From Hysterangium stoloniferum (taxonomy: Eukaryota; Basidiomycota; Agaricomycetes; Hysterangiales; Hysterangiaceae): 64,000 nt of DNA. The position numbers and the translations under genes were made by a program. The notes under the pieces are model-generated. The model was not told the DNA's origin and ran no database searches. It worked only from the letters and a program-made list of their open reading frames with translations. The stretch lies in NCBI GenBank assembly GCA_015178975.1, contig WHVD01000004.1, positions 1,612,001 to 1,676,000 of the forward strand. Reading direction: 5' to 3'. Shown here in pieces: positions 6,415-23,380 of the stretch. Each line of letters begins with the position of its first letter. The stretch's first letter is position 1.

Positions 6415-7486
6415 TCAATCTTGTTCCACTCCTCCTCCACCCTCTCCCACAACTCCAGTATCCCTTAGGCTCCTCTTTTTATGATCCCACAAATGTTCAA
6501 TGGGGTTGAGGTCTGGAGACTGTGCTGGCTGGCCATAGGAGGACATTGAAATCATTATCTTGAAACCAAGTCTGGGCCTTCTTGCAGGTGTGTCCAGGGT
6601 GATGATCTTGCTGAAAGATGACATTACCCACATATTTTCCATAACAGCTGAGGCTGGCTTGAAGGTCCTCCTCCATAATCTTGAGATAAAGGTCCCCATC
6701 CATGATCTCATCTATCTTGAAAGAATACCCAGGTGGTTCCCACAGCATGTAGCCCTATAAAATCACAAATACTTCTCCAAACCTCACAAATAATCCTTTC
6801 CAATGAGTCTCCTATATATACATATTTGTAGTATTTCCATATTTGGATTTTATGCAATGGCACTGTATTTCCATAATATAGGTATGGTAGAGCATATTCA
6901 CAAATATCTTTGATATTTCTTTGATATTTTTGCATTTTTATTCTCTGAGTTATCAGGGATGTAAATCTGAAGTTCCAAACATTAGAAGGGTTATTGAGGC
7001 ACTCCCAACCATATTAAGACTATTGTGTACAGTTTGGGTATAGATGGACTGGTTCGTGACATCCCTAAGAGCTTTGGCCATATCAACAGCAGTGTCAGCC
7101 TTCCCAGAGCTGATGAGATGCTGTGCATAATGAATATTGGTAGGGGAAAGCTTGGAGGGATGAGCACCAATGAACTTTGAGAGATGACAATGATGATTGG
7201 AGTGAAGTCTAGAGACTGTACCAATGCCATGGCCAGTAGAAGCTGTAATGTGGCTAGCTGTATGGCAAGCATCAAGCAGTGAGAAAATATGATTCTGGAT
7301 AACAAGAGACAAAGTTTGCATTTTGGGAATTGGGGCATTGCTAGTTGCTAAAGGCCATATATTTATACTCCAGCACAATGTGGTCATGTGACATGATGTG
7401 ATTTTGTTGATAGGACCCAGTTGGAAGTGAATGATCAACAAGATGACATGACTATAAGCATTTATAGTCATCAAGCTGTCAGCCAA
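6415..7486 (-). pseudogene. Tc1-like transposase, interrupted
   Basis: A DDE transposase that would cut and paste the surrounding element at TA sites. The N-terminal part (minus, about 7400-7004) has the paired helix-turn-helix region with HPSKLSPTNIHYAQHLISSG and a second helix ending SIYTQTVHNSLNMVG, typical of fungal Tc1 proteins. The C-terminal part (minus, 6757-6415) has the second catalytic Asp in VIFQQDHHPGHT and the block AQSPDLNPIEHLWDHKKR containing the last acidic residue. Between them, 6757-7003 is foreign sequence, and there are frameshifts. It is inactive as it stands. Confidence 0.85.
6757..7003. repeat. Copy of a foldback arm inserted in the Tc1 transposase
   Basis: This block reads like the right end of the surrounding nest: a Tc1 end (CCAATGAGTCTCCT), then TATATATACATATTTGTAGTA and the inverse of the foldback arm, through GTAGAGCATATTCACAAATA to AGAAGGGTTATTGAGGCACT. 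It is more diverged than the outer arms. It shows that the Tc1 end and the arm occur joined elsewhere, so the two may have moved as one unit at some time. Confidence 0.7.
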
Positions 7487-7724
7487 AAAACCCTTCTAAT
7501 GAGTCTCCTGTATATAAATATTTGTAGTATTTCCATATTTGGAGCTTATGTAATGGCATTGTATTTCAACAGTCTAGACAAGCTTAGGAACCCTTGCTAC
7601 GCTGCGGGGCGGTCGCTTTGCGACCGGCCCCACAACTTTGCTGTGGGCTCCAGCTTGTTGGGGGGCGAAGCCCCCCAAACCCCCCCGCGTCAACAACTTT
7701 TAAGTATTTCTGAGACAGGAGGTC

Positions 7725-8700
7725 AATCAGAGGACAAAGAGAGAAGGAAACAGCACAGGCACCCTGGAAGAAAGAGAGATGGGGCTGATCAGAGCAGGAT
7801 GGAGGAAGAAGGAAATGGTACATGCACCACCTGGAGGCAAGAGAGGCCAATCAGAGCAGGATGGAGAGAGAAAGAAATGGTACACACACCATCTGGAGGA
7901 AAGAGAGAGGGGCCCATTCAGAGCAGGACGGAGAGTGAAGGAAATGGTACACACACTGGCTGGAGGAAAGAGAAGAGGACAATCAGAGGAGGATGAAGAG
8001 AGAAGGAAACTGTACACCCACCGCCTGGAGGAAAGAGAGGAGGACAAAGGGAGAAAGACAGGCTACATCCAACTCCTGGAGGAAAGAGAGAGGAGGACGA
8101 TCAGAAGAAGACAAAGAGAGAAAGACAGGGTACACGCACCTCCTGGAGAAAAAAGGGAGAGGGGAAGGGTACACACTCACTGGAGGAAAGGGAGAGGAGG
8201 ACAATTAGAGGAGGGCAAAGAGAGAAGGAAAGGGTACACACACTCGCTGGAGGAAAGGGAGAGGAGGACGATCAGAGGAGGGCAAAGAGAGAAGGAAAGG
8301 GTACACGCACTCGCTGGAGGAAAGGGAGAGGAGGACGATCAGAGGAGGGCAAAGAGAGGAGGAAAGGGGACACGCACTTGCTGGAGGAAAGAGAGGAGGC
8401 CATCAGAGGAGGACGAAGAGAGAAGGAAAGGGTACATGCACTTCCTGGAGGAAAGAGAGGAGGCCCATGAGTGGAGGACGAAGAGAGAAAGAAAGGGTAC
8501 ACACACATCCTGGAGGAAAGAGAGAGGAGGCAATCAGAGGAGGACGAAGAGAGAAGAAAAGGGGACACGCACCAACTGGAGGAAAGACAGACAGACAAAG
8601 AGAGAAGGAAAGGGGACACACATCCTGGAGGAAAGAGGTGAGGACGATCAGAGGAGGATGAAGAGAGAAGGAAAGGGGACACGCACCAACTGGAGGGGCC
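7725..8700. repeat. Purine-rich minisatellite, about 57-67 bp period
   Basis: Around 15 variable copies of a unit containing GGAGGAAAGAGAG, GATCAGAGGAGG, GAAGAGAGAAGGAAA and GGTACACGCAC. Copies vary in length and carry many CpG variants. It lies within Helitron unit 1. Confidence 0.9.
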
Positions 8701-8819
8701 GATCAGAGCAGGGTGCACGCCCAATTGGGCACAAATGGGCACAGCGCGTTGCGAACAGGCGTGGCGCGTGCGCGCGTTGGCAAACGGAACGCGCTTTGCC
8801 GGTTTGTGCCCGAGTGGGC

Positions 8820-9330
8820 GGGCAGGCATGTGCCCATGGATGGGAGTGTGTGCGCCGTGGATGGGAGTGGGTGCGTCATGGATGGGTACGCGGTGGATGG
8901 GTGCGCGGCGGATGGGTGCGCGGTGGATGGGTGTGCGGTGGATGGGTGCGCGGTGGATGGGTGCGCAGTGGATGGGAGTGGGTGCGTCGTGGATGGGTGC
9001 GTCATGGATGGGCGCGTCGTGGATGGGCGCGCGGTGGATAGGTGCGTGGATGTGCGCAGCGGATGGGTGCAGGTGCGCGATGGATGGGTGCGCGGTGGAT
9101 GGGCGCGCGGTGGATGCGTGGACGGGTGCGCGGTGGATGGGTGCGCGGTGGATGGGAGTGGGTGCGTCGTGGATGGGCGCGTCGTGGATGGGCGCGTCGT
9201 GGATGGGCGCGTCGTGGATGGGCGCGTCGTGGATGGGCGCGCGGTGGGTGCGTGGATGGGTGCGTCGTGGACGGGCGCGCGGTGGGTGCGTGGATGGGTG
9301 CGTCGTGGGATGGGTGCGCCGTGGGATGGG
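8820..9330. repeat. GC-rich minisatellite, 15-bp period
   Basis: About 30 copies of GGATGGGTGCGCGGT with variants (GGGCGCGTCGT, GGGAGTGGGTGCGTC). It is directly followed by the 5' terminal block of Helitron unit 1. Confidence 0.9.
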
Positions 9331-9344
9331 TACGCTGACTAAGG

Positions 9345-9600
9345 AGGTGACTAAGCTGATGGTACCTTTTACCTGCCTTTTATGGAGGGAGTTCGGGCGC
9401 TCCGCGCCCTCACAGCGCCTAAAAGCGCCCACGGACCCACCATGCTCCTTTCACTTATTTGACAAGCCTGGGAACCCTTGCTACGCTGCGGGGCGGTCGC
9501 TTCGCGACCTGCCCCCCAACTTCGCTGCGGGCTCCGGCTTGTTGGGGGGCTTCGCCCCCCAAACCCCCCCGCGTCCATGACTCTTAAGTATTTCTCAGCA
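9345..9600. repeat. Junction block of Helitron units 1 and 2
   Basis: It contains the 5' end block of unit 1 (hairpin GGGCGCTCCGCGCCC at about 9396, GCGCCTAAAAGCGCCC, ending CACTTATTTGA at 9462) fused directly to the 3' end block of unit 2 (CAAGCCTGGGAACCC from 9463, GGTCGC-TTC-GCGACC hairpin, GGGGGG-CTTCG-CCCCCC hairpin). Blocks of the same make-up recur at 16690-16910, 18540-18790 and, in part, 20225-20396. Confidence 0.85.
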
Positions 9601-9678
9601 CTTCTAAGTATTTACATATCACAATCACTGTTAGAAGTTAGAAAAGTTAGAAACAATCAATCAAAATACATTAAAACT

Positions 9679-12600
9679 TCAATCTAATAATACATCTTTG
9701 TACACTATATTTGCTGTTCTCTTTGTCTCCTTTAATAATATTTTTATCCTATTCCAACTTCTTCCCCTTGAAAGTCCCACATACAATTGCCCATGTCCAA
9801 ACACTGCCATTCTCAAATCTATTCCCACCACTTTCAAAGACTGTCCCTGTGACTTGTTAATTGTCATTGCAAATGCCAACCGCACTGGAAACTGAATACG
9901 ATGCAGTTTAAATGGCAGTTGATCATCATTTGTAATTATTTTGATCCGTGAAAGAAATGCCATTTTTCCAGTACATGGTCCAGTTAGAATCCGCACTTGA
10001 AGCAAATGATTTTCCATTTTCACCAGTCGCAATCGTGTCCCATTGAAAAGCCCCCTCTGTGGATCTATGTTCCGTAACAGCATCAATGGCACTCCTGGCT
10101 TCACCTCAAGTCGACTTGGTGGGATTCCACCAAAATTCAGGCCATTCAAATACTCTACAGGATACATCTCTGTCTCACTGTCTCCCTCTGCAGTATCAGC
10201 ACTGTGATACATACGACTCTCTCCAGGGAATTTATTCAGAAGTTCTGAATTAATCTCATCTACTTCTGAATTCCTTGGACACAGAATTGCCCGGTCTAAG
10301 AAGACTTCATCTTGCCAATCCCTTTGGTCTCTATCCACATGGATGTCTGGATATATCTCAGCAATTAAATCAGACATTTCTGGACCACAGATCATATGAG
10401 GAGGGATATCCATTGTATGATCCAAAGGTAAATCCTTTCCATGGCCTATATCCAATAGCCACTGAGCAAACTGTTCACTGTCTGGATCATCCTGGTCCAC
10501 CCGCATATTCTTTTTCAAGAAGAGTACCTTGATATGCTTCCAGAGTTCTGATTTCTGGATACATTGTCCAATGATCTGTTCTTTTGAACCCTTTGGTACA
10601 ACAGGCAAAGTCTGCTGGAAGTCACCTCCCCAGGCCACAGGGATCCCTCCAAAGGGAAGATCCTCCTTGTCTAATAAATCCCTCAGGGTTCTGTCAACTG
10701 CCTCACATGTGAAACGTGACTGCATGGGAACTTCATCCCAGATAATCAGTCGGACCTTCTTCATGAGCTCTGCTTTTTCTGAACCCTTTTTGATATGACA
10801 TAGAGCATCCTTCTCACAGGGAACAGGGATTGAAAATGTGCTGTGAGAGGTGCGACCACCCTTGAGAATCATTGATGCAATTCCAGAAGATGCCACACAA
10901 AGTACAATGTAGCCCTTGGCCCTACATGCATGTGCCAGAGTATTCCATACAAAGGACTTGCCAGTACCACCTGGACCATTCACAAAAAACAATTTGCCCT
11001 GCTGCTCATCCACTGCTTTCATTATAGTCTCAAAGGCAGCTCGTTGTTCAGGATTACACTTTTCAAGATTGGCTTGGGCACTGGCATGCTCAATATCAAC
11101 ATCATAATCTGACTGCTCCCTAATGAGACGGTTGCCAACAATGCCATCCCAAACATCAGTGCAGTTTGGCATGGTTGGATAGTGTGAAAGGGACTTTCCA
11201 GAATAGCGGAGGATCTTATCAATCTCATAGAGACCAAAGTCATAAATCCTGTCTGGTGATGGATTGACAATGCCATGTTTTTGCTGAAGTATGAACTTCA
11301 AATCATCACAAAGAAATGCTTTGAAGTCATTCCAGAGTTCATGGGGTTGTGCAGGGGAGGACATGGTCAAAATGATGGCAAACAACCTACGAAGTTGAAA
11401 CCCAGACTCTATGCGACTGGCTTCTGTGAGGCACATGTGCCACTGGCGGTCATCTTCAAGCAAACCACGTGCAACACAGGCTTGCTGAAATGTGGGATAA
11501 GTCTCACCCTGAAAAGTCCTGAGCTGTTCAAATGAGGTGGCACCTTTGACAACAGTGAGCAAAGTACGGAGGTGGAATCTTTCCCCACTGGCAATATTGA
11601 CAAAATGAATGCGCCCTATGGAAAAACCACTTTGACGTGGCTTCCATGATTTCTTCTTGGGGACATATGTGAAATACTCAGGAAAGTCCATATAAAATGT
11701 GTCCTGGGCACGCTGTCCATTATAACCAATGAGACCCTTGGCATTAGCTTCAAAATAAGCCATGAGAGTTGTCCCTGAGCGCTCTGCCCTTTGTAAAGCC
11801 TCAGCAGGACCTTGATCAGCATCAAAAAGTACAGTGTTTTCCCCAGGAAGATGGACACCAAGTGCCATTACTGCAGGAACCTGGGTGTGGAGTTCATTAC
11901 GCATTAACCGCCAGACAGATTCATGTGCACTGACATAACGTGCATCAATGTACTGTTGAATTTCATCTGGTGTCTTTCCAAATTCCATAGTTGTACGATC
12001 ATGGCCCTTGTAACAGTATTTATGCATGTACTTCATTGACCTATTGGTAAAGGTCAACTCTACATTGATGTGACATTCAAAGGTGAGAATCAAAATGGGG
12101 GAGTAAGGGACAACATGTCTGTTGTCATATGTAAACTTGGGAGTTTGATAAACCCTTCCATTGTTGGGGCGACGGCATGTTGGATAGCCTTCCTCATTGA
12201 CAATAGTGGCTTCACACCAATCCTTTGGATAGTGTTTACTGCATTCCTTATCTACCATACAGGCAGCATTTGGATGATCAGTTCCACAGGGACCATGGGT
12301 CATGAGCTGACCTACTAAATTAAACAGTCTGGGATGTGTTTCAGGATCTGGAAAACAGGCAGAAACCATGGAGTCAACATCTTCTGGTGTCCTTGGCTTA
12401 TTCTGGTCATCAAACCATATAAGGCAGTGCATGTGTGGAAGACCCCGCTTTTGGAATTCAATGACATGGATGTGGGCTACTGTTCTACCAAAGATGTGGT
12501 CCTCTGTGATCATCTTGAGCAACTTAGCCTTCTTGGCAGCAAAGACCCTGGAGACTAAATCAGGACGATCAGCTGGAGTCTGGCCAGGAAGCAATTCATC

Positions 12601-15363
12601 AGTAACCTCCTTCCACTTGGGATTGGCTGTCATGGTGATGAAGCAGCTGGCATTGCCATACTTTCGTGCAATTGCAAATGAATTTTGCAAACTTTGTCTC
12701 ATATCCCTTGAACTGCCAGTAAATGTAGAAGGAAGTATGACCCTCTGACCAATACTATTGGCATCTGTGTTGACATCCTCACGTGTAAAGGCATCGACCA
12801 CCTGGTTGTAGAGTTCTGCACGTAACCTTGGTTGATTATCTCTGAGAAACCTCAATCTGCGCTGCTCCGTTACTGCCCAGGCATTGACAATATACTGTTG
12901 GAATAGCTTTTGTGCATAAAAAAGGGTCATGGCTTCGTATGCTCTGGGAAATAGGCGATAGGCATAATATTCACATTGGGTCACCTTCCGACTTTTATCT
13001 TCATCTTCACCTTCTTCATCCTGCTGTCCAGGCTGGGGCTGCCAATTTTGATTGGCATAGGGAATGTCCCATGACCAACCACGCTCACCCCTGGGAAAGA
13101 GCATGACATAATGAAGGGGTGTATAAATGGCTTGTGCATCATGGACATGATGGAACTGGCCCCCTCTCCTCTGAACAATAATATCCCTTGGGTCACCACG
13201 ACCTGTATCACCATCTCCAGGGAGAATGACTGCAAGTTCATCACCGGTTGGAAGATTGTACCGTCTGGGATCATTAAAAGCTTTGTAGCTCAGCCTGACA
13301 TGTAACCTTGGAGTCTCTGCCTGTGTCCTCAATCGCTCATGTGCCTGGCGATAGAGTTGTATAAAGGGATTATATTGCTCCATCATATCCTGCAAGTCAG
13401 AAAAGGTTTGGTTATTTAGGTTTCTATTTGCCCTGTGATTCTGCCTCTGCTGCAATGCCTGCCTCAGTCCATCCTCCTGTGCCAATGCAGGATCATGGAT
13501 GTAAAGCTGAGCATAACTACGTGATACACCTTCTGTGTAAGGAATCAAGGCACCATGCTGGTGATACAATTCACCATGGATTTTGAAGACATATGGGCCA
13601 CCACCGCCTTGCAAGACAGACTCATCCAAATTGACACCGAGTGATGTAAATGCAAATGCATTATTATAGGCACGAATATTCTTGAGAAATTCTCTGCTAT
13701 TGTCTGTGTTATTCTCCAGGAGAGACCTTAAAGTGTGAGGGACTGGCTCAAGTATTGGGAGGGCCACCTTTCCTCGCTTGCAACACTTGCCAAATTTTGG
13801 ATGTGTCTTAGAGCTATTTGAGATACGCTCATCCATCCAGTGCAAAGCTCCACAGTCTGAACACTGTATGTCCATACGTCCCAAGTCATGTCTTTGAAAC
13901 CGGTCCTCCACAACTGGTTGCCGTCCAATAGGTAATTGTGGAATGGGAGGTGGAGGCATAGCTGCAGGCTGTAAAATGGCTGGAGGTGGGGGAATAACTG
14001 GAGGTGGGGGAATAACTGGAAGTGGGGCTAACTGTAGTTGCTGTTGCTGTTGTGGAGCTGGATTTTCAGGTAGATGGTGAAGCTGTGGTGGTGCCCACTG
14101 CAAAATAGGTGCTTGTTGTTGTTGTGGAGCTGGATTTCCAGGTGGATGATGCTGCTGTGGTGGTGGTAACTGCAAAATAGGTACCTGTGCCTGGAGTTGT
14201 GGAATGGCAGGAGGTAGTACTAACTGTAGCTGTTGTTGCTGTTGTGGAGCTGGATTTCCAGGTGGATGGTGAAGCTGTGGTGGTGCCCACTGCAATATAG
14301 GTTGTTGTTGTTGTTGTGGAGCTGGATGTCCAGGTGGATGGAAATGCTGTGGTGGTTGCCACTGCAAAATAGGTGGTTGTTGTTGCTGTGGATGGTAATG
14401 CTGTGGTGGTTCCCACTGTAAAATAGGTGGTTGTTGCTGCTGTGGATGGTGATACTGTAGTGGTGCAGCTACATTTCCTGGTTGATGACCATGCTGTGGA
14501 TGTGGTGCTGACTGTAAAATTTGTGGCTGCAGTTGAGCAGGTTGGTCTAACCGTGGTAAAGCAGCATACTGAGCATACAGAGCAGCTACTCCAGCAGAGC
14601 CAACTGCAGGCTGGACAGCTTCACCTGCAGGTGCACCCTGTTGTATATAAAGTGGTTGCTGAAGTTGAGCAGCTACATTGCCTCGTACATGACCTGGTGC
14701 CTGTGGCTGAACAGGTGCATTTGCTGGTTGATGACCTTGCTGGATATGTGGTGCTAACTGCAAAATTGGTTGCTGCAATTGAGCAGCTACATTGCCTCGT
14801 ACATGACCTGGTGCATTTGCTGGTTGATGACCCTGCTGGATATGTGGTGCTAACTGCAAAATTGGTTGCTGCAATTGAGCAGCTGGATTTCTCCGTCCAC
14901 GACCCTGCCTAAGAGGTTGTAATGGTGGCAAATTTTCATACTGCCTACGCAAAAGAGCCACTGCATCAGAGCCAACTATAGCAGAGCCACCTGCAGCAGA
15001 GCCACCTGCAGCAGAGCCACTTGCAGCAGAGCCACTTGCAGCAGAGCCACTTGCAGCAGAGCCACTTGCAGCAGAGCCACTTGCAGCAGAGCCACTTGCA
15101 GCAGAGCCACTTGCAGCAGAGCCACTTGCAGCAGAGCCACCTGTAGCAGAGCCACCTGCAGTAGAGCCACCTGGCTGAGCAACCAAAAATGGATTATCAG
15201 GTTGACCTCTACCAACAGGGAGATCTCCAAATGGTCGAGGAGGGAGTAATATATTAGAATTCACAGCTAAACGTCGATGACGATCAGATGGAGATGTCAT
15301 TTGCAATTGTGCCCTACGCTGCCTTCGCTCCTCCTCCCGATTACGCTCAGGTGTTCGATCCAT
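9679..15363 (-). CDS. Helitron Rep/helicase protein
   Basis: Rolling-circle transposase-helicase of about 1894 residues, fully open; the frame extends 16 codons upstream but I take the Met at 15363 (MDRTPERNREEERRQ) as start because the preceding residues look untranslated. Order: Gly/Ala/Ser repeats (about 65-130); Gln/Pro-rich low complexity (to about 480); a Cys-rich finger with CSDCG and KCCK (about 498-535); Helitron-like N domain; Rep HUH motif LPHMH (about 975); Rep tyrosine motif KYMHKYCYKGH (about 1110); PIF1-type helicase with Walker A GPGGTGKS (about 1464), Walker B IIWDEVP (about 1540), GGDFQQTLPVV and a C-terminal TINKSQGQS...YVGLSRG. All expected catalytic residues are present, so the protein may be functional. 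It would nick, unwind and strand-transfer the element in the nucleus. Confidence 0.93.
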   Translation of the reverse strand: MDRTPERNREEERRQRRAQLQMTSPSDRHRRLAVNSNILLPPRPFGDLPVGRGQPDNPFLVAQPGGSTAGGSATGGSAASGSAASGSAASGSAASGSAASGSAASGSAASGSAASGSAAGGSAAGGSAIVGSDAVALLRRQYENLPPLQPLRQGRGRRNPAAQLQQPILQLAPHIQQGHQPANAPGHVRGNVAAQLQQPILQLAPHIQQGHQPANAPVQPQAPGHVRGNVAAQLQQPLYIQQGAPAGEAVQPAVGSAGVAALYAQYAALPRLDQPAQLQPQILQSAPHPQHGHQPGNVAAPLQYHHPQQQQPPILQWEPPQHYHPQQQQPPILQWQPPQHFHPPGHPAPQQQQQPILQWAPPQLHHPPGNPAPQQQQQLQLVLPPAIPQLQAQVPILQLPPPQQHHPPGNPAPQQQQAPILQWAPPQLHHLPENPAPQQQQQLQLAPLPVIPPPPVIPPPPAILQPAAMPPPPIPQLPIGRQPVVEDRFQRHDLGRMDIQCSDCGALHWMDERISNSSKTHPKFGKCCKRGKVALPILEPVPHTLRSLLENNTDNSREFLKNIRAYNNAFAFTSLGVNLDESVLQGGGGPYVFKIHGELYHQHGALIPYTEGVSRSYAQLYIHDPALAQEDGLRQALQQRQNHRANRNLNNQTFSDLQDMMEQYNPFIQLYRQAHERLRTQAETPRLHVRLSYKAFNDPRRYNLPTGDELAVILPGDGDTGRGDPRDIIVQRRGGQFHHVHDAQAIYTPLHYVMLFPRGERGWSWDIPYANQNWQPQPGQQDEEGEDEDKSRKVTQCEYYAYRLFPRAYEAMTLFYAQKLFQQYIVNAWAVTEQRRLRFLRDNQPRLRAELYNQVVDAFTREDVNTDANSIGQRVILPSTFTGSSRDMRQSLQNSFAIARKYGNASCFITMTANPKWKEVTDELLPGQTPADRPDLVSRVFAAKKAKLLKMITEDHIFGRTVAHIHVIEFQKRGLPHMHCLIWFDDQNKPRTPEDVDSMVSACFPDPETHPRLFNLVGQLMTHGPCGTDHPNAACMVDKECSKHYPKDWCEATIVNEEGYPTCRRPNNGRVYQTPKFTYDNRHVVPYSPILILTFECHINVELTFTNRSMKYMHKYCYKGHDRTTMEFGKTPDEIQQYIDARYVSAHESVWRLMRNELHTQVPAVMALGVHLPGENTVLFDADQGPAEALQRAERSGTTLMAYFEANAKGLIGYNGQRAQDTFYMDFPEYFTYVPKKKSWKPRQSGFSIGRIHFVNIASGERFHLRTLLTVVKGATSFEQLRTFQGETYPTFQQACVARGLLEDDRQWHMCLTEASRIESGFQLRRLFAIILTMSSPAQPHELWNDFKAFLCDDLKFILQQKHGIVNPSPDRIYDFGLYEIDKILRYSGKSLSHYPTMPNCTDVWDGIVGNRLIREQSDYDVDIEHASAQANLEKCNPEQRAAFETIMKAVDEQQGKLFFVNGPGGTGKSFVWNTLAHACRAKGYIVLCVASSGIASMILKGGRTSHSTFSIPVPCEKDALCHIKKGSEKAELMKKVRLIIWDEVPMQSRFTCEAVDRTLRDLLDKEDLPFGGIPVAWGGDFQQTLPVVPKGSKEQIIGQCIQKSELWKHIKVLFLKKNMRVDQDDPDSEQFAQWLLDIGHGKDLPLDHTMDIPPHMICGPEMSDLIAEIYPDIHVDRDQRDWQDEVFLDRAILCPRNSEVDEINSELLNKFPGESRMYHSADTAEGDSETEMYPVEYLNGLNFGGIPPSRLEVKPGVPLMLLRNIDPQRGLFNGTRLRLVKMENHLLQVRILTGPCTGKMAFLSRIKIITNDDQLPFKLHRIQFPVRLAFAMTINKSQGQSLKVVGIDLRMAVFGHGQLYVGLSRGRSWNRIKILLKETKRTANIVYKDVLLD
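14976..15170 (-). repeat. 15-bp in-frame repeat in the Helitron gene
   Basis: About 12 copies of a 15-bp unit (plus strand GCAGAGCCACTTGCA) encode SAASG repeats. A second, longer in-frame repeat family (13940-14900) encodes Gln/Pro-rich blocks such as QQQQQPILQWAPPQ. Confidence 0.9.
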
Positions 15364-15411
15364 ACTAATATAGCAATCACAGCAGTAGTAGCAGAGAGAG
15401 AAACCCTGCAA

Positions 15412-16530
15412 GAGAGGGGGAAGAGAGGAGGGGCAGAAAGTTGTGGTGAATTAGACTAAAATAAGCCAAAGAAAATTACAGGGAAAGGACTCACTTTCAA
15501 TACTCCACTTATACTTATATGGAGTGGTCACAAACACAGTAGAGAGTGGCAGAAAAGAAATGCAGACAAATGGCTCTAAAATAGCCTAAAAACATGAACA
15601 ATAATGTATAAATATCTTTTAATAGCATGAGGGAAGGTACCAATACAAACTGGGAGATATGTTATATCTTCCAGTAACAATAGAAACAGCAATCAAGGCA
15701 AAACGGCCCAGAATAGACGGTCAATTTCACTGTAAGAACAATATTTGAGCAAAAAAAGGTAAGATTAATTACAGGGACAGGAATCACCTTCAATACTCGA
15801 CTTATAATCACAGAGAAGACTCAAAAAGCAGTGGAGAGTCCTATGGAAAGGAAATTCAGACAAATAGATCTAAAATAACCCAAAAATGGGTAAAATAATG
15901 CATAAATATATTACAACAGCATGAGAAAGCCCAAAACATACCTGATATTATAGGATAGTCTTCAGACTGTGTATTTCAAAATTATGAATGAGAAGAACAC
16001 CCGGGAAAGGGTAATCTGACTGCCAATAAATTATTTAATCATTAAAAAAAGCGAAAATTAAATAATAATTGGTAGAAGCTCACCACACCTTTTATATTGC
16101 CTGAGGAGTTGAAGAAGGGTTCAGAGATGATAAATGCTCAATATGGGGGGTCCAGGGCCAGTGGATGGCCAGACTCTAACTGCAGAATAATATATTTAAT
16201 TATTAAAAAAGCGAAATTTAATAGGATTAAATAGAGCCCTCAACACACCTTGATATGGGCCCAGATACCTTGAGAAATATTCCAGAGAGGATCCCCTCAC
16301 AATTTAAAGAGGACAAAGCTGGGGGAGGGAGAGGGGAAGGGAGAAAGTATGGCAGCCTCAAGGCTTTACAGCGGGCTTCCGGGCTTCCCGCGGCTATGGC
16401 CTAAAATGTTCCCACGCGTCGCAAAATAGTTCCGGGTATGTCACAAATGTCACGGAAAAGCTCCCGCGCCGTGAGAAAAGCTCCCGCGGCGTCATTAAAT
16501 ACTCCCGCGTGTGCAAAAATGCCCCCGCGC
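15412..16530 (-). promoter_or_regulatory. Non-coding 5' region of the autonomous Helitron
   Basis: No gene. Read on the minus strand, it runs from the 5' end block into the Rep/helicase start. It has three loosely related ~250-300-bp sections, each with a 'caggact-cac-ctt' motif followed by 'aatact' and A/T-rich sequence (about 15475, 15775, 16075), so it is internally repeated, then a purine run (16316-16350) and CCCGCG-type repeats (16385-16520). The promoter presumably lies here, but I cannot point to its core elements. Confidence 0.5.
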
Positions 16531-16600
16531 TGACTAATAAGAGACTTCGGGCGCTAGCGCGCCCTCAGCTTAGTCACACACTCACACGCACCCTCATCGG
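16530..16600. repeat. GC hairpin flanked by GACTAA/TTAGTC
   Basis: GACTAATAAGAGACTTC, then the GGGCGCTAGCGCGCCC palindrome, then TCAGCTTAGTC. The inner palindrome is nested in outer GACTAA/TTAGTC arms. Equivalent structures are at about 18500-18545 and 20220-20265 in units 3 and 4 (with GCTAACGC), and a decayed one at about 21520-21570. Confidence 0.85.
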
Positions 16601-16942
16601 GATTTTTCGACCCTGATGGGGAAGAAGCTCGGGCGCTCCGCGCCCTCACGGATTGGGGCGCCTTCGGCGCCTACAAAGCGCCCACCACCCACCGTACAAC
16701 TTTACTTTATATGATGGAGGGAGTTCGGGCGCTCCGCGCCCTCACAGCGCCTAAAAGCGCCCACGGACCCACCATGCTCCTTTCACTTATTTGATGACAA
16801 GCTTAGGAACCCTTGCTACGCTGCGGGGCGGTCGCTTCGCGACCGGCCCCACAACTTCGCTGCGGGCTCCAGCTTGTTGGGGGGCTTCGCCCCCCAAACC
16901 CCCCCGCATTGACAACTTTTAAGTATTTCTGAGACTCATCGT

Positions 16943-17360
16943 TTGAACGGAAAGTGCTCAGAGAACGGAAAGTGCTCAGAGAACGGAAAGTGCTCAGAGA
17001 ACGGAAAGTGCTCAGAGAACGGAAAGTGCTCAGAGAACGGAAAGTGCTCAGAGAACGGAAAGTGCTCAGAGAACGGAAAGTGCTCAGAGAACGGAAAGTG
17101 CTCAGAGAACGGAAAGTGCTCAGAGAACGGAAAGTGCTCAGAGAACGGAAAGTGCTCAGAGAACGGAAAGTGCTCAGAGAACGGAAAGTGCTCAGAGAAC
17201 GGAAAGTGCTCAGAGAACGGAAAGTGCTCAGAGAACGGAAAGTGCTCAGAGAACGGAAAGTGCTCAGAGAACGGAAAGTGCTCAGAGAACGGAAAGTGCT
17301 CAGAGAACGGAAAGTGTTCAGAGAACGGAAAGTGTTCTTAGAACGGAAAGTGTTCTTAGA
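16943..17360. repeat. 18-bp minisatellite, about 23 copies
   Basis: Almost identical copies of GAACGGAAAGTGCTCAGA, with the last three degrading to GTTCTTA variants. Homogeneity suggests recent expansion. The ENGKCS-type open frame through it is a repeat translation. Confidence 0.95.
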
Positions 17361-17394
17361 ACAGTTACAAAGGAGTCAAAAGTTACAAAAGGAG

Positions 17395-17755
17395 TCAAAG
17401 GTTACAAATGGAATCAACGGTTACAAACGGAATCAACGGTTACAAACGGAATCAACGGTTACAAACGGAATCAACGGTTACAAACGGAATCAACGGTTAC
17501 AAACGGAATCAACGGTTACAAATGGAATCAACGGTTACAAATGGAATCAACGGTTACAAAGGAATCAACGGTTACAAACGGAATCAACGGTTACAAATGG
17601 AATCAACGGTGACAAATGGAAATGACAGCTACAAAAGGTGCAACAGTGACAAAAGGTGCAACAGTGATAAAAGATGCAATAGTGACAAAAGGTGCAATAG
17701 TGACAAAAGGTGCAATAGTTTCAAAAGCAGCAATGGTTTCAATCAAACATTGAGT
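17395..17755. repeat. 19-bp and 18-bp minisatellites
   Basis: About 11 copies of ACGGAATCAACGGTTACAA (17400-17615), then about 6 copies of GTGACAAAAGGTGCAATA variants (17630-17740). Confidence 0.92.
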
Positions 17756-17759
17756 TGAT

Positions 17760-18045
17760 CTTACTGTCATGTATTGTAGTTTATTTTACTTTATGTAATT
17801 TAGTTTTTATTACATTTTACTTTGGTTTATTCTATTTTATTATATTTTTAAACATTTTATTTTGATTTATTGTATTTGATTTTGATTTATTGTATTCTAT
17901 TTTGATTTATTACATTTTGCTTTAGTTTAATTCAATTTTTAAGCATTTTACTTTTATTTTTTGTATTTATTTCGATTTTTCCTATTTTATTTATATTTTA
18001 TCCTATGTTATTTTGATTTATTGTATTTTATTCTAATTAACCCGG
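17760..18045. repeat. A/T-rich low-complexity stretch
   Basis: Repeats on the theme TTTTATTTTGATTTATTGTA. The same kind of stretch occurs at 19520-19800 in unit 4, so it is a shared module of the non-autonomous units. Confidence 0.85.
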
Positions 18046-18049
18046 AAAA

Positions 18050-18490
18050 CCATGTAGACCTCCTCCGGGGATTACCATCCTTCTCCGGGGAAATGGCTTT
18101 ACAGGGGCGTGGGAAATAGTTCCACAAAATGTGTGGAAAATGCCTGAGGGGCGCGGGAAATAGTTCCGCGAAGGTATGGAAAATCACTGTGTGAAGGGCG
18201 CGGGAAATTCCCCCGGAAATGACGTGGGAAATGCTTACATGAAGGGCGCGGGAAATGTTCCTTGGCGAGTCGTGCGTGGGAAATGTCTTCATTAGGCTGT
18301 GAAATGGTTCCGCACATGTGACAAATACTCCCGCGGCATTACAAAATACTCCCGCGTGTGTAACAATACTTCCGTGCACGTGACAAAACACTCCAGCGCC
18401 TGTAACAATACTCCCGTGGCGCCATAAATGCTCCCAGGCCGTGAGAAAAGCTCCCGCGGCGTCATTAAATACTCCCGCGTGTGCAAAAAT
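18050..18490. repeat. CGCGGGAAA / CTCCCGCG repeats of unit 3
   Basis: First half: loose 24-30-bp repeats with GGGCGCGGGAAATG. Second half: repeats with AATACTCCCGCG. The two halves are complementary in base make-up, so the transcript could fold back. The same module precedes the 5' end block in units 2 (part) and 4. Confidence 0.8.
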
Positions 18491-18676
18491 GCCCCCGCGC
18501 TGACTAATAAGAGACTTCGGGCGCTAACGCGCCCTCAGCTTAGTCAGACAGTGAGGTTCGGGCGCTGCGCGCCCTCACAAATTGGGGAAAAAGCTCGGGC
18601 GCTCCGCGCCCTCACAAATAGGGCCTGCGGCGCCCAAAAACGCCCACCACCCACCATGCTCCTTTCACTTATTTGA

Positions 18677-20396
18677 CAAGCCTGGGAACCCTTGCTACGC
18701 TGCGGGGCAGTCACTTCGTGACCTGCCCCACAACTTCGCTGCGGGCTCCGGCTTGTTGGGGGGCGAAGCCCCCCAAACCCCCCCGCATCGACAACTCTTA
18801 AGTATTTCTGAGGCCCATTGTTCTAAAAGGGAAGCTGTTTGAATGAAAGTCACCTTAGAATGGAAAGTCACCTTAGAATGGAAAGTTACCTTAGAACGGA
18901 AAGTCACCTTAGAACAGAAAGTCACCTTAAAACAGAAAGTCACCTCAGAGCAGAAAGTGTTCAGGGGATGGAAAGTGTTACAAAGGAAACAATGGTTACA
19001 ACACGAAATGAAAGGAAACAATTGTGATAAAGAGAAACAAAAGGAAACAAACATTACAAAGGAAACACCCTTTACAATGGTCACAAAAGAAAAGAATGGT
19101 CACAAAAGAAAACAACAGTGACAAAAGAAAACAACAGTGACAAAAGAAAACAACAGTGACAAAAGAAAACAACAGTGACAAAAGAAAACAACAGTGACAA
19201 AAGAAAACAACAGTGACAAAAGTGTAAGAATGGAAACTGTTTAAAGAACAGAAACCATTACAAAAGGTATTACAAAAGACAGAAAGAAATATTACAAATG
19301 GAACAATAGTTTCAAAAGGAACAATGGGTACAAAAGGAGCAACAGTTTCAAAAGGAGCAATGGTTGCAAAAGGAGTAATGGTTTCAAAAAAGCAGTGGTT
19401 TCAGATGGAGTAACTGAATAGAGATTGAGTTGATTCAACTGAAATTGATGTACAATTGAGACAGCATTGATATGATATAGCATTGATTGAGAATTGATAA
19501 GCATTGAAGAAACATTAATAGAGCATGGATAGAGCATTGATATATTTTATTGTATTTCAATAAAATGGAAAAAAGATATATTGTATTGTATATTTTATTG
19601 TATTTCAATTTATTCCATTTTATTTTGATTTATTTTGTTCTATTTTTAAACATTTTATTTTGATTTATTGTATTTTATTCTGATTTTTCCGATTTTATGT
19701 AATTTTGAAGCATTTTATTTTCATTTACTGTATTTTATTTCGATTTATTCTATTTTACTTTATTTCTAAACATTTTATTTTCATTTATTGTATTTTATCG
19801 AATGCTTCCGTGAGGGCGCGGGAAAGACTCCCAAAAGGGGGCGGGCAATTCTCCCGGAAAGGTCGTGGGAATGTGTTCTTGAGGGGCGCGGGAAATGGTC
19901 CGGTGAAGGGCGTGGGAAAAACTGCGCGGGAAATGCTTACTGAACGGCGCGGGAAATGCTGACATGAAGGGCGCGGGAAATTCTACTGGAGGTTCGTGGG
20001 AAATGTGTCCGGTGTATGAAATGGTTCCGCGCATGACAATGCTCTCGCGGCATCTGAAAATACCTCCGCGCAAATACTCCCGCGCGTGGACAAATACTTC
20101 CGCGCGTCACAAAATACCTCCACACGTTAGGAAATACTTCCGCGCCTGTCACAGAATACTCCCGCGGCGCCACAAATGCTCCCGCGAATGCCAAAAAGCG
20201 TGCGGATTTGCTCCCGCGCTGACTAATAAGAGACTTCGGGCGCTAACGCGCCCTCAGCTTAGTCACACAGTGCGTTTCGGGCGCTGCGCGCCCTCACAAA
20301 TTGGGGAAAAAGCTCGGGCGCTCCGCGCCCTCACAAATAGGGCCTGCGGCGCCTAAAAACGCCCACCACCCACCAAGCAACTTTACTATATATTGA
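18677..20396 (-). mobile_element. Helitron unit 4 (non-autonomous, 5'-most)
   Basis: 1720 bp. The 3' end CAAGCCTGGGAACCC at 18677 matches unit 2. The 5' end at 20396 reads TCAATATATAGTAAAGTTGC on the minus strand, directly next to host A. The interior has the same module order as unit 3: minisatellites (18840-18960, 18-bp GAAAGTCACCTTAGAACG type; 19085-19215, 19-bp ACAAAAGAAAACAACAGTG; 19310-19400), A/T-rich stretch (19520-19800), CG-rich repeats (19800-20215) and GC-hairpin end block. Confidence 0.8.
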
Positions 20397-20510
20397 TATG
20401 ATAGAGCATATTCACAAATATTCTTGAAATTTTTGAAATTTTATCCTCTGAGCTATCAAGGTTATACATCTGAAGTATCAAACATTGGAAGGGTTTTTTG
20501 AGTCACTGTA

Positions 20511-21407: not shown

Positions 21408-22578
21408 TCATATAAAGTAAAGTTGTACAGTGGGTGGTGGGCATTTTTAGGTGCTGAAGGTGCCCTAATGCGTGTGCACACCCAAACTTTCCCGATGAGG
21501 GTGCATGTGAGTGTGTGACTAGGCTGAGGGCGTGTTAGTGCCCGAAGTCTCTTATTAGTCGGCATGGGAGCAAATCCAGAGGCTTTTTGGCATTTCCGGG
21601 AGTATTTTTGATGCTGTGGGAATATTGTGTGATGGGTGTGGAAGTATTTTGTGACGGGCAGGAGTATTTTGTCACTTGCGCGGAGGCATTTCATGATGCG
21701 TGGGAATATTGTTACTGTGTGGGAGTATTTTGTCACATGCACGGAGGTATTTTCCAATGCCATGGGAGTATTGTTACATGTGAGGGAGTATTTTGTCACA
21801 TGCACAGAAGTATTGTTATACACCCGGGAGCATTTTTGAACCGTGTGGGAGTATTTTGTCAGGTTGTGGGAGTATTTTGTCAGGTTGTGGGAGTATTTTG
21901 TCAGGTTGTGGAAGTATTTTGTCAGGTTGTGGGAGTATTTTGTCAGGTTGTGGGAGTATTTTGTCAGGTTGTGGGAGTATTTTGTCAGGTTGTGGGAGTA
22001 TTTGTCACATGCACAGAACCATGTCACACACCCTAATGAATTTCCTGCACCCTTCAAATCAGCATTTTCCGTGCCATTCACGTAAGCATTTTCCGTGCCA
22101 TTCACGTAAGCATTTTCCGTGCCATTCACGTAAGCATTTTCCGTGCCATTCACGTAAGCATTTTCCGTGCCATTCACGTAAGCATTTTCCGTGCCATTCA
22201 CGTAAGCATTTTCCGTGCCATTCACGTAAGCATTTTCCGTGCCATTCACGTAAGCATTTTCCGTGCCATTCACGTAAGCATTTTCCGTGCCATTCACGTA
22301 AGCATTTTCCGTGCCATTCACGTAAGCATTTTCCGTGCCATTCACGTAAGCATTTTCCGTGCCATTCACGTAAGCATTTTCCGTGCCATTCACGTAAGCA
22401 TTTTCCGTGCCATTCACGTAAGCATTTTCCGTGCCATTCACGTAAGCATTTTCCGTGCCATTCACGTAAGCATTTTCCGTGCCATTCACGTAAGCATTTT
22501 CCGTGCCATTCACGTAAGCATTTTCCGTGCCATTCACGTAAGCATTTTCCGTGCCATTCACGTAAGCATTTTCCGTGC
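21408..22578 (+). mobile_element. Decayed Helitron unit 5, opposite orientation, 3' end lost
   Basis: Starts TCATATAAAGTAAAGTTGTA right after host A (21407). The end block (21408-21570) aligns with the reverse complement of 16540-16714, but nearly every CpG is TpG or CpA (for example GGGCGTGTTAGTGCCC for GGGCGCGCTAGCGCCC). Repeats follow: loose GGGAGTATTTTG units (21590-21840), 21-bp x 8 (21845-22005) and 24-bp x 21 (22077-22578). The 3' hairpin end is missing; the unit breaks off at a chromovirus LTR. Confidence 0.78.
21845..22005. repeat. 21-bp minisatellite, 8 copies
   Basis: Copies of GTTGTGGGAGTATTTTGTCAG, nearly identical. It corresponds to the CTCCCGCG-type repeats of intact units read in the other direction. 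Confidence 0.93.
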
Positions 22579-22580
22579 CA
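22060..22580. repeat. 24-bp minisatellite, about 21 copies
   Basis: Essentially identical copies of a unit containing CGTAAGCATTTTCCGTGCCA. Its reverse complement resembles the CGGGAAATGCTTACATGAA repeats at 18220-18260, so it is a local expansion of a repeat already present in the Helitron module. The long open frames on both strands are repeat translations. Confidence 0.95.
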
Positions 22581-23380
22581 CCGGACTCCAGGCATTAACT
22601 TATACACACCCGTGCCCTATACGCACCCATTATCAGTTTACTGGAATTCCTGCCGGACTCCATACATCAGACTTGTCTACATTTGACTTCGTTACGTTGT
22701 GTTTCAATCACCAGAAAACCCACCGGACTCGGTCCCTGTCCATGTCCGACCTCGTCCCACACATCAGTCACTGGACCCTGCTCAGAATACCTGTCTTCCC
22801 TCTAACAGAGCCCTGTTCCTGTTTTAGTCAAATGACCTGTCACGATTCAGACTCCGCTCCTGCTCTGTTTCCTGTTATGGTTTATGATTTGTCACTATTT
22901 GGACTCCGCTCCATTCCATCCTGTTCCTAACACCAAACTTGGTGTTTACTATTCCCGTTTTATGTTTTGCTTGTTTCGTTTCATCATTACTGAATTTGGT
23001 ATGTCATTCACTCCACGGTCTATTTAAACTGGCAGATGTTGTACTTACAATCCAGTCAGAAAATCGGCTTAGATTCCCCCCAGTAATCTAATACATTTTC
23101 CACTCTAAACTCCTACTTGAATTACACTGCTCACGCTAGTCAGAGCCCACGGGCTCCGGCGCATCTATCTCACCTATCTCGACTCACAACCTCATGACCC
23201 ACGACCTCTGACCTACGACCTCCTGACCCACAACCCCCGGCCAGACTCCCCGGGATTCCCGTCCGCCTGTCTGAAATTGGATGACACGATCTAGTGAGGG
23301 TGCAGCCTATAAGCTGAAGCCAAGTCCTACTGGATATTCCATGGGTTTCTCTGGAGACCCACCATGTACGTACCCTAACA
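22579..23380 (+). repeat. 5' LTR of chromovirus 1 (first ~20 bp missing)
   Basis: Aligns along its length with the 3' LTR at 29598-30393: shared TGACCTGTCACGATT, CACCAAACTTGGTG, a TATTTAAACTGGCAGATG TATA-like region (23030-23047) and the end ATAAGCTGAAGCCAAGTCCT...CCTAACA at 23380. The TGTTACGACC start is missing and replaced by minisatellite. Confidence 0.88.

What the first reader, a model, noticed from the sequence alone, without database searches (positions are those of the whole stretch)
7579..20396. Four Helitron units in a direct head-to-tail array inside one A/T target
Each unit runs from a TC start to a CTTG end on the minus strand with its own GC-hairpin 3' block, and the units join without filler at 9462/9463 and 18676/18677 and with three bases at 16794/16798. 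One unit has the Rep/helicase gene and three do not. Helitron tandem arrays are known in animals and plants, but a mixed autonomous/non-autonomous array with this architecture in a fungus looks unusual. Two explanations fit: rolling-circle read-through past the terminator, or repeated insertion at the A/TC junction, which re-creates an A/T target each time.
Basis: partly seen in the sequence, partly recalled or inferred. Interest (0 to 1): 0.85.

Follow-up and report, generated by a model that had tools for sequence, protein, structure and literature searches.

The report
Helitrons stacked by serial 5'-end insertion
In this probably fungal genome a family of rolling-circle jumping genes mostly lands, in the same direction, on the front end of copies already present, so it builds head-to-tail stacks; the four-copy stack in this window is a clear example of that habit.

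Summary
Four Helitron units lie head to tail on the minus strand (7579-9462, 9463-16794, 16798-18676, 18677-20396); only the second encodes Rep/helicase. In 12 of 12 paralogues read, the surrounding repeat runs unbroken through the joined flanks, so the array sits in one exact A|T target.

The array is typical of its genome. Of 100 exact 3' ends read, 78 join the 5' end of another unit in the same direction, 2 lie inside another Helitron and 20 in other DNA; chance predicts about 0.002. Searches covering six of the 5'-end types found no inverted 5'-to-5' junction.

Neighbours differ in kind and length. Some joins lack exactly the first 3-4 bases of the older 5' end; in two loci read in full those bases lie on the far side of the inserted unit.

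Adjacent Helitrons, serial insertion and composite 5' ends are published for maize and Fusarium. The scale, the direction bias and the footprints look like a new variant. That Rep cleavage at resident 5' ends makes them preferred targets is my inference, untested.

The parts
7301..7578 (.). Left part of the repeat that holds the array; A at 7578 is the target A on the plus strand
   Evidence: Joined with 20397+ it matches uninterrupted paralogues, 12 of 12 read
7579..9462 (-). Unit 1, non-autonomous, 1884 bp; 3' end of CTTA type, B-type 5' end (TCAAATAAG); internal repeats
9463..16794 (-). Unit 2, autonomous; 3' end of CCTG type, composite 5' end
   Evidence: its 3' part has a 99.3% copy (2036 bp) beside a unit-1-like copy at L002
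9682..15411 (-). Rep/helicase open frame, 1910 aa, no stop
   Evidence: Helitron_like_N 1.1e-57, PIF1 9.5e-74, Pif1_2B 1.6e-13; HMH at residue 993, YMHKY at 1128, Walker A at 1479
16688..16714 (-). Inner A-type 5' end of unit 2 (TCATATAAAG), preceded by A
16715..16794 (-). 80 bases identical to the 5' end of unit 1, in front of the inner 5' end
   Evidence: 80 of 80 identical to 9383-9462; in unit 1 the sequence goes on with the A|T that is cut here
16795..16797 (-). Filler TCA between units 2 and 3
   Evidence: the same B-end plus TCA join is at C68 (L059)
16798..18676 (-). Unit 3, non-autonomous, 1879 bp; CTTA-type 3' end, B-type 5' end, 18 bp repeat array
18677..20396 (-). Unit 4, non-autonomous, 1720 bp; CCTG-type 3' end, A2-type 5' end (TCAATATATAG); predicted youngest
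7579..7656 (-). 3' hairpin block of unit 1
   Evidence: z -4.77
9463..9540 (-). 3' hairpin block of unit 2
   Evidence: z -4.13
16798..16875 (-). 3' hairpin block of unit 3
   Evidence: z -4.44
18677..18754 (-). 3' hairpin block of unit 4
   Evidence: z -4.69
20397..20510 (.). Right part of the interrupted repeat; T at 20397 is the target T on the plus strand

Best explanation
The array grew by successive insertions of separate Helitrons into the A|T at, or within a few bases of, the 5' end of the outermost resident unit, in the direct orientation. Each insertion at A|TC leaves host A, new TC...CTTG, old TC, so an A|TC target is offered again and the array grows at its 5' side (unit 1 oldest, unit 4 youngest). 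Shown: direct joins, T after every sampled 3' end, footprints inside the resident 5' end, unlike neighbours, one outer A|T target. Inferred: resident 5' ends are preferred because the Rep protein recognises and nicks them at A|TC, as it must to start transposition, and the CTTG end of the incoming strand is joined to the freed TC. Also inferred: unit 2 got its double 5' end when an A-type element inserted 80 bases into a unit-1-like copy and the pair was later moved from the outer TC; and the order of insertion.
For: In 100 sampled exact 3' ends (the first 100 listed, of 409 with up to 2 mismatches) 100 of 100 are followed by T. 78 join another unit's 5' end in the direct orientation (64 exactly at TC, 11 with a short filler, 3 with the first bases changed or missing), 2 lie inside another Helitron (L092, L122) and 20 in other DNA (one search scored 77 automatically, then I moved L122 out and L017 and L077 in by eye). 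Random A|T insertion predicts about 0.002 of 100. Genome-wide, 204 of 350 exact 3' ends follow [AT][AT][TG]GA, which misses most filler and shifted joins. Inverted junctions found: 0. Footprints: at C28 one unit lies between TCAA and TATATAGTAAAG (L164); at C68 one unit of 2412 bases lies between TCA and TATAAGGTAATTCGC (L207 with L059); each pair of sides adds up to a known kind of 5' end. A third, at C90 (TCCA and TATATAGTAAAG; L209, L189), is read only at its ends. Neighbours differ in length. Neighbouring pairs diverge unequally: L002 99.3% for the unit-2 part, 94.4% for the unit-1-like part; L007 97.9% and 87.6%.
Against: Of 6 clear shifted joins (L077, L115, L184, L188, L189, L198) I read the far side of 5; 3 fit and 2 do not (C124, L165; C31, L208). 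In 10 of 11 filler joins the filler begins like the unit's own 5' end, so slippage could make it; only L133 is clearly from another type. In the 64 A2-type ends followed by GAT none is followed by GATC, so a ban on G two bases before the joint could by itself explain the missing inverted joins. Not all 78 need be independent: 91 of 100 neighbour strings are distinct. Unit 2 has a TCA filler on one side but a complete 5' end on the other. Unit-1-like neighbours are repeat-rich, so their lower identity may not mean age. There are no protein or transposition data.
Confidence: 0.66

Rival explanations
1. Rolling-circle read-through: replication runs past the CTTG terminator and one event lays down a multimer, which then diverges.
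For: The C51 locus has nine identical 44-base copies of a Helitron 5' end, bounded exactly by TC and a CTAG that is part of this copy's sequence; that looks like multimer formation. Published for bat and silkworm arrays (passage in PMC4067079).
Against: In this array and in the runs looked at the neighbours are unlike (1 of 23 adjacent length pairs within 3%) and carry different 5' and 3' types. Multimers do not give joins that begin inside the 5' end.
Confidence: 0.1
2. Double-stranded Helitron circles, which carry a CTTG|TC joint, integrate by homologous recombination into the shared 3' block of a resident copy. This also gives exact, direct joins.
For: Circles with joined ends are reported for Helraiser (PMC5876387) and suggested by PCR for a Fusarium Helitron (PMC5148889), passages only. 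The 3' blocks share 80-93% over 164 bases here. It would explain many of the 64 exact joins and the missing inverted ones.
Against: It does not predict joins that begin inside the resident 5' end or the matching bases on the far side.
Confidence: 0.14
3. Insertion is random over A|T sites; arrays are survivors because insertion into Helitrons is harmless, and later duplication spread a few original junctions.
For: Some neighbour strings repeat (91 of 100 distinct); L080 and L088 have the same flank.
Against: Only 2 of 100 sampled 3' ends lie in the kilobases of other Helitron bodies, while 78 lie at the first few bases of a 5' end. Selection on harm cannot single out those bases or one direction.
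Confidence: 0.05
4. Assembly artefact.
For: Tandem repeats are hard to assemble and no reads were seen.
Against: The same kind of joint recurs at many places on many contigs with differing neighbours.
Confidence: 0.03

Closest known systems
Adjacent head-to-tail Helitrons of the maize r1 region (PMC2267711; passages read)
   Same: Two unlike Helitrons joined CTAG|TC with a G/T joint; the authors give consecutive insertion, including insertion at the A|T made by host A and the resident T, as one of their models.
   Different: One pair, order of insertion not settled. Here 78 of 100 sampled 3' ends are so joined, with footprints at A|T inside the resident 5' end.
Fusarium FoHeli elements and the Metarhizium acridum triple (PMC5148889; passages read)
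   Same: Self-insertion near a 5' end, composite elements with several 5' termini and one 3' terminus, one three-copy tandem in a fungus; both models named.
   Different: Helitron2-like ends and other targets; single cases. Here the ends are TC...CTTG in A|T and arrays are the rule.
Pleurotus HELPO1/HELPO2 (PMC4289320; passages read)
   Same: Basidiomycete Helitrons with A|T insertion, hairpin, Rep and helicase; HELPO2 ends in CTTG.
   Different: The words tandem and array do not occur in the text searched; nested occurs once.
Tandem Helitrons of bat and silkworm, and Helraiser circles (PMC4067079, PMC5876387; passages read)
   Same: Head-to-tail joints and circular intermediates.
   Different: There attributed to a bypassed terminator or rolling-circle replication; here unlike neighbours and footprints point to serial insertion.
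Maize Helitrons that insert near one another and have multiple termini (PMC3288121; passages read)
   Same: Preference for insertion near other Helitrons; composite ends from nesting.
   Different: Near, not at the first bases of the 5' end in one direction.

Membership tests
Canonical Helitron | 5' TC terminus | tested here: met
   4 of 4 units
Canonical Helitron | CT-type 3' tetranucleotide: CTRR in most, CTTG accepted in basidiomycete HELPO2 (PMC4289320) | tested here: met
   CTTG in 4 of 4 units; it does not fit CTRR in the strict sense
Canonical Helitron | Hairpin shortly before the 3' end | tested here: met
   4 of 4 units, z -4.13 to -4.77; it lies further from the end than the 10-15 bases usually quoted
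Canonical Helitron | Insertion between A and T without target duplication | tested here: met
   Empty site in 12 of 12 paralogues read; T after 100 of 100 3' ends
Canonical Helitron | One protein with HUH Rep and PIF1-like helicase | tested here: met
   Unit 2
Canonical Helitron | Rolling-circle transposition through a circle | not testable with these tools
   No reads, no living material
Helentron / Helitron2 | Insertion between T and T, endonuclease domain, subterminal inverted repeats | tested here: not met
   A|T insertion; no endonuclease among the 8 Pfam families matched; inverted repeats were not examined in detail
Read-through multimer | Neighbouring units alike | tested here: not met
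   1 of 23 adjacent length pairs within 3%; differing end types
Serial insertion at A|TC of a resident | Resident 5' end split at an A|T, its two parts on either side of the inserted unit | tested here: met
   Two loci read in full, a third by its ends; 2 of 5 tested did not show it; not shown for the array in this window

The most novel reading that the evidence does not exclude
This Helitron family homes on its own 5' ends: the Rep protein uses the transposition start site of resident copies as its main, direction-locked landing site, so that dispersed elements turn into growing arrays, and a 5' end followed by any early CTTG or CTAG is enough to define a new unit without the 3' hairpin (a 44-base TC...CTAG unit repeated nine times, and 22- and 23-base TC...CTTG units).
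Probability: 0.45. Interest if true: 0.75.

Novelty: new variant of a known kind. Interest (0 to 1): 0.58.

Why it matters
How tandem Helitron arrays arise, by bypassed termination or by serial insertion, has been argued from single cases. Here one genome holds hundreds of 3' ends of one family, most of them joined to resident 5' ends, with footprints that separate the models and a clear prediction (growth at the 5' side). If resident 5' ends are true homing sites, the family limits its own spread into genes and makes composite elements with new 5' ends, which would explain why one 3' block is shared by at least seven kinds of 5' end.

Tried and rejected
Read-through multimers: rejected as the main source because neighbours are unlike and some joins begin inside the 5' end. 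Inverted junctions: searched with five patterns. (A/A3 types): 3 palindromic places with 3 mismatches against 6 in the control; the arms of all 3 read, none is a Helitron end. (core of A, A3, B, C types): 13 palindromic places with 1 mismatch against 7 in the control; all 13 read, 1 (L169) has one Helitron arm, none has two. (B, B2 ends followed by TC): 0. (A2 ends followed by TC): 0 exact, 64 with T followed by A, G or T. D-type ends and inverted joins with filler were not searched. My first idea that the direction bias proves Rep nicking was weakened: none of those 64 ends has G two bases before the joint, where the window's make-up predicts 19%; at least five of the 64 carry filler, so not all are host bases. 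Slippage was considered for the fillers and cannot be excluded for 10 of 11. The difference between 3' types (CCTG 54 of 64 joined, CTTA 22 of 35; Fisher p 0.024, automatic classes) was not pursued. An age ranking of the four units was not attempted: they belong to different subfamilies.

The host was not identified. 120 of 1941 protein relatives are listed; named ones include Coprinopsis, Phanerochaete, Antrodiella, Amanita, Psilocybe and Panaeolus (45-48%), but also Rhododendron records (44-47%) and an arachnid record (35%). That the genome is a basidiomycete's is inference.

Print: searches; passages read in eight papers, no paper read whole. I found no report there of a family with most 3' ends joined to resident 5' ends; subscription journals are not in that library, and the maize work by Yang and Bennetzen and the bat work by Pritham and Feschotte were seen only as cited by others.
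Full report
Observation. On the minus strand they read TC...CTTG at 7579-9462, 9463-16794, 16798-18676 and 18677-20396, with TCA (16795-16797) between units 2 and 3. The 3' blocks are 80-93% alike over 164 bases and fold into hairpins. Unit 2 has an uninterrupted 1910-aa frame with Helitron_like_N and PIF1 domains, an HUH motif and Walker A. Units 1, 3 and 4 consist largely of short tandem repeats.

Target. The two outer flanks, joined, match a dispersed repeat straight through the joint. In 12 of 12 loci read, the best-scoring of 40 scored among 776 candidates, the alignment crosses the A|T without gap at the joint. The 12.8 kb array therefore sits in one A|T target, without duplication.

Unit 2 is composite. 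Its outer 80 bases are identical to the 5' end of unit 1 (80 of 80) and stop at CTCCCTCCA|T, where an A-type 5' end (TCATATAAAG) begins. Unit 1 still has that A|T. The simplest reading is that an A-type autonomous element inserted there in a unit-1-like copy and the pair was later moved from the outer TC. The same explanation of composite 5' ends was given for Fusarium (PMC5148889, passages).

Genome-wide. The 3' end occurs 409 times with up to 2 mismatches over 24 bases and 350 times exactly over 19. I read the upstream side of the first 100 listed exact places (30 loci, 70 fetched). In the element's direction, 100 of 100 are followed by T. [quoted passage not shown] Two lie inside another Helitron, in the same direction. 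Twenty lie in other DNA (the automatic score was 77, corrected by eye at L122, L017 and L077). The sample runs in contig order and is not random; 91 of the 100 neighbour strings are distinct. A random choice among A|T sites would give about 0.002 (using the window's AT density). An independent count: 204 of 350 exact 3' ends follow [AT][AT][TG]GA. Seen from the other side, 13 of 22 B-type 5' ends run into a 3' end and 9 are free. On contig C28, eight successive 3' ends between 35251 and 55012 lie in one direction, and each is preceded by a 5' end.

Direction. An A|T target allows both directions, so insertion next to a resident 5' end could also give a head-to-head joint reading GA|TC. None was found for the A, A3, B, B2, C and A2 types. 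The D types were not searched. A caution: in 64 A2 ends followed by GAT none is followed by C, so the family may simply avoid GA|T targets, against 19% expected from the window. That would give the direction bias but not the enrichment.

Footprints. In six clear cases the 3' end joins a 5' end that lacks exactly its first 3 or 4 bases, cut at an A|T: L077, L115, L184, L188, L189, L198. I read the far side of five. At C28 the inserted unit has TCAA in front and TATATAGTAAAG behind (L164). At C68 a 2412-base unit has TCA in front and TATAAGGTAATTCGC behind. At C90 the ends read TCCA and TATATAGTAAAG, which together give a 5' end seen whole at L018, but the interior was not read. At C124 and C31 there is no matching filler; a later insertion at the filler could account for that but was not shown. 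Filler joins are weaker evidence, as 10 of 11 begin like the unit's own end; L133 (TCCAA before an A-type end) does not.

Neighbours. In ten runs that I chose, 1 of 23 adjacent spacings agree within 3%, and neighbouring ends are of different types. At L002 and L007 copies of unit 2 are closer to the window (99.3%, 97.9%) than their unit-1-like neighbours (94.4%, 87.6%), as expected if young units joined older, different copies; repeats in unit 1 may exaggerate this.

Mini-units. At C51 a unit-1-like element has its first 44 bases nine times in identical copies, bounded by TC and CTAG, with A before and GCGC after. At C124 a 23-base TC...CTTG piece of an A2 5' end lies between host A and T, and at C399 a 22-base one follows repeats of TCATA. 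A pattern for such 22-23-base units occurs twice in the genome. I read these as transposition from the 5' end that stopped at an early CTTG or CTAG, without the hairpin. For C51 rolling-circle multimers are a fair alternative to repeated insertion.

Mechanism. Shown: exact, direct joins; A|T use; splitting of resident 5' ends; unlike neighbours; one outer target. Inferred: Rep nicks the resident 5' end at or near A|TC and the CTTG end of the incoming strand is joined to it. The model predicts growth at the 5' side, no insertion at the G|T of internal joints, and no head-to-head joints. Confidence 0.66 for serial insertion as the main route; lower (0.45) for true homing.

Known or new. Adjacent unlike Helitrons in maize with the same two models (PMC2267711), tandem Helitrons in bat and silkworm put down to a bypassed terminator (PMC4067079), preference for the neighbourhood of other Helitrons in maize (PMC3288121), composite 5' ends and a fungal triple (PMC5148889), and CTTG ends in Pleurotus (PMC4289320) are in print; I saw passages of these. 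In some searches I found no family in which most 3' ends join resident 5' ends, nor such footprints. I rate it a new variant of a known kind.

Noticed in passing
window 21408-22600 (+): An A-type Helitron 5' end (TCATATAAAG) on the plus strand, about 1 kb from the array and in the opposite direction, followed by long arrays of a 24-base and other repeats; no matching 3' end was found in the window with up to 5 mismatches.
   Followed up: partly
L142 (C51:36300-37100): Nine identical 44-base copies of a Helitron 5' end bounded exactly by TC and CTAG: a satellite born at a transposon end.
   Followed up: partly
L067 (C124) and L206 (C399:179000-179160): 22-23-base TC...CTTG units made of a 5' end only, beside stacks of TCAA, TCA and TCATA.
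   Followed up: partly
window 7301-7578 with 20397-20510; L026, L107, L191, L192, L201, L203: The repeat that holds the array has taken insertions of this family at nearly the same point in six other copies by eye; the target reads TCATATCTA, like the start of A- and C-type 5' ends.
   Followed up: partly
A2-type 5' ends, genome-wide: None of 64 ends followed by GAT is followed by C, that is no G two bases before the joint; 19% expected from the window.
   Followed up: partly
window 16945-17330: Unit 3 holds about 20 near-identical copies of an 18-base repeat, which may vary in number between strains.
   Followed up: no
genome, at least seven 5'-end types: One 3' block is shared by at least seven kinds of 5' end (A, A2, A3, B, B2, C, D), as if 5' ends were exchanged often.
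   Followed up: no
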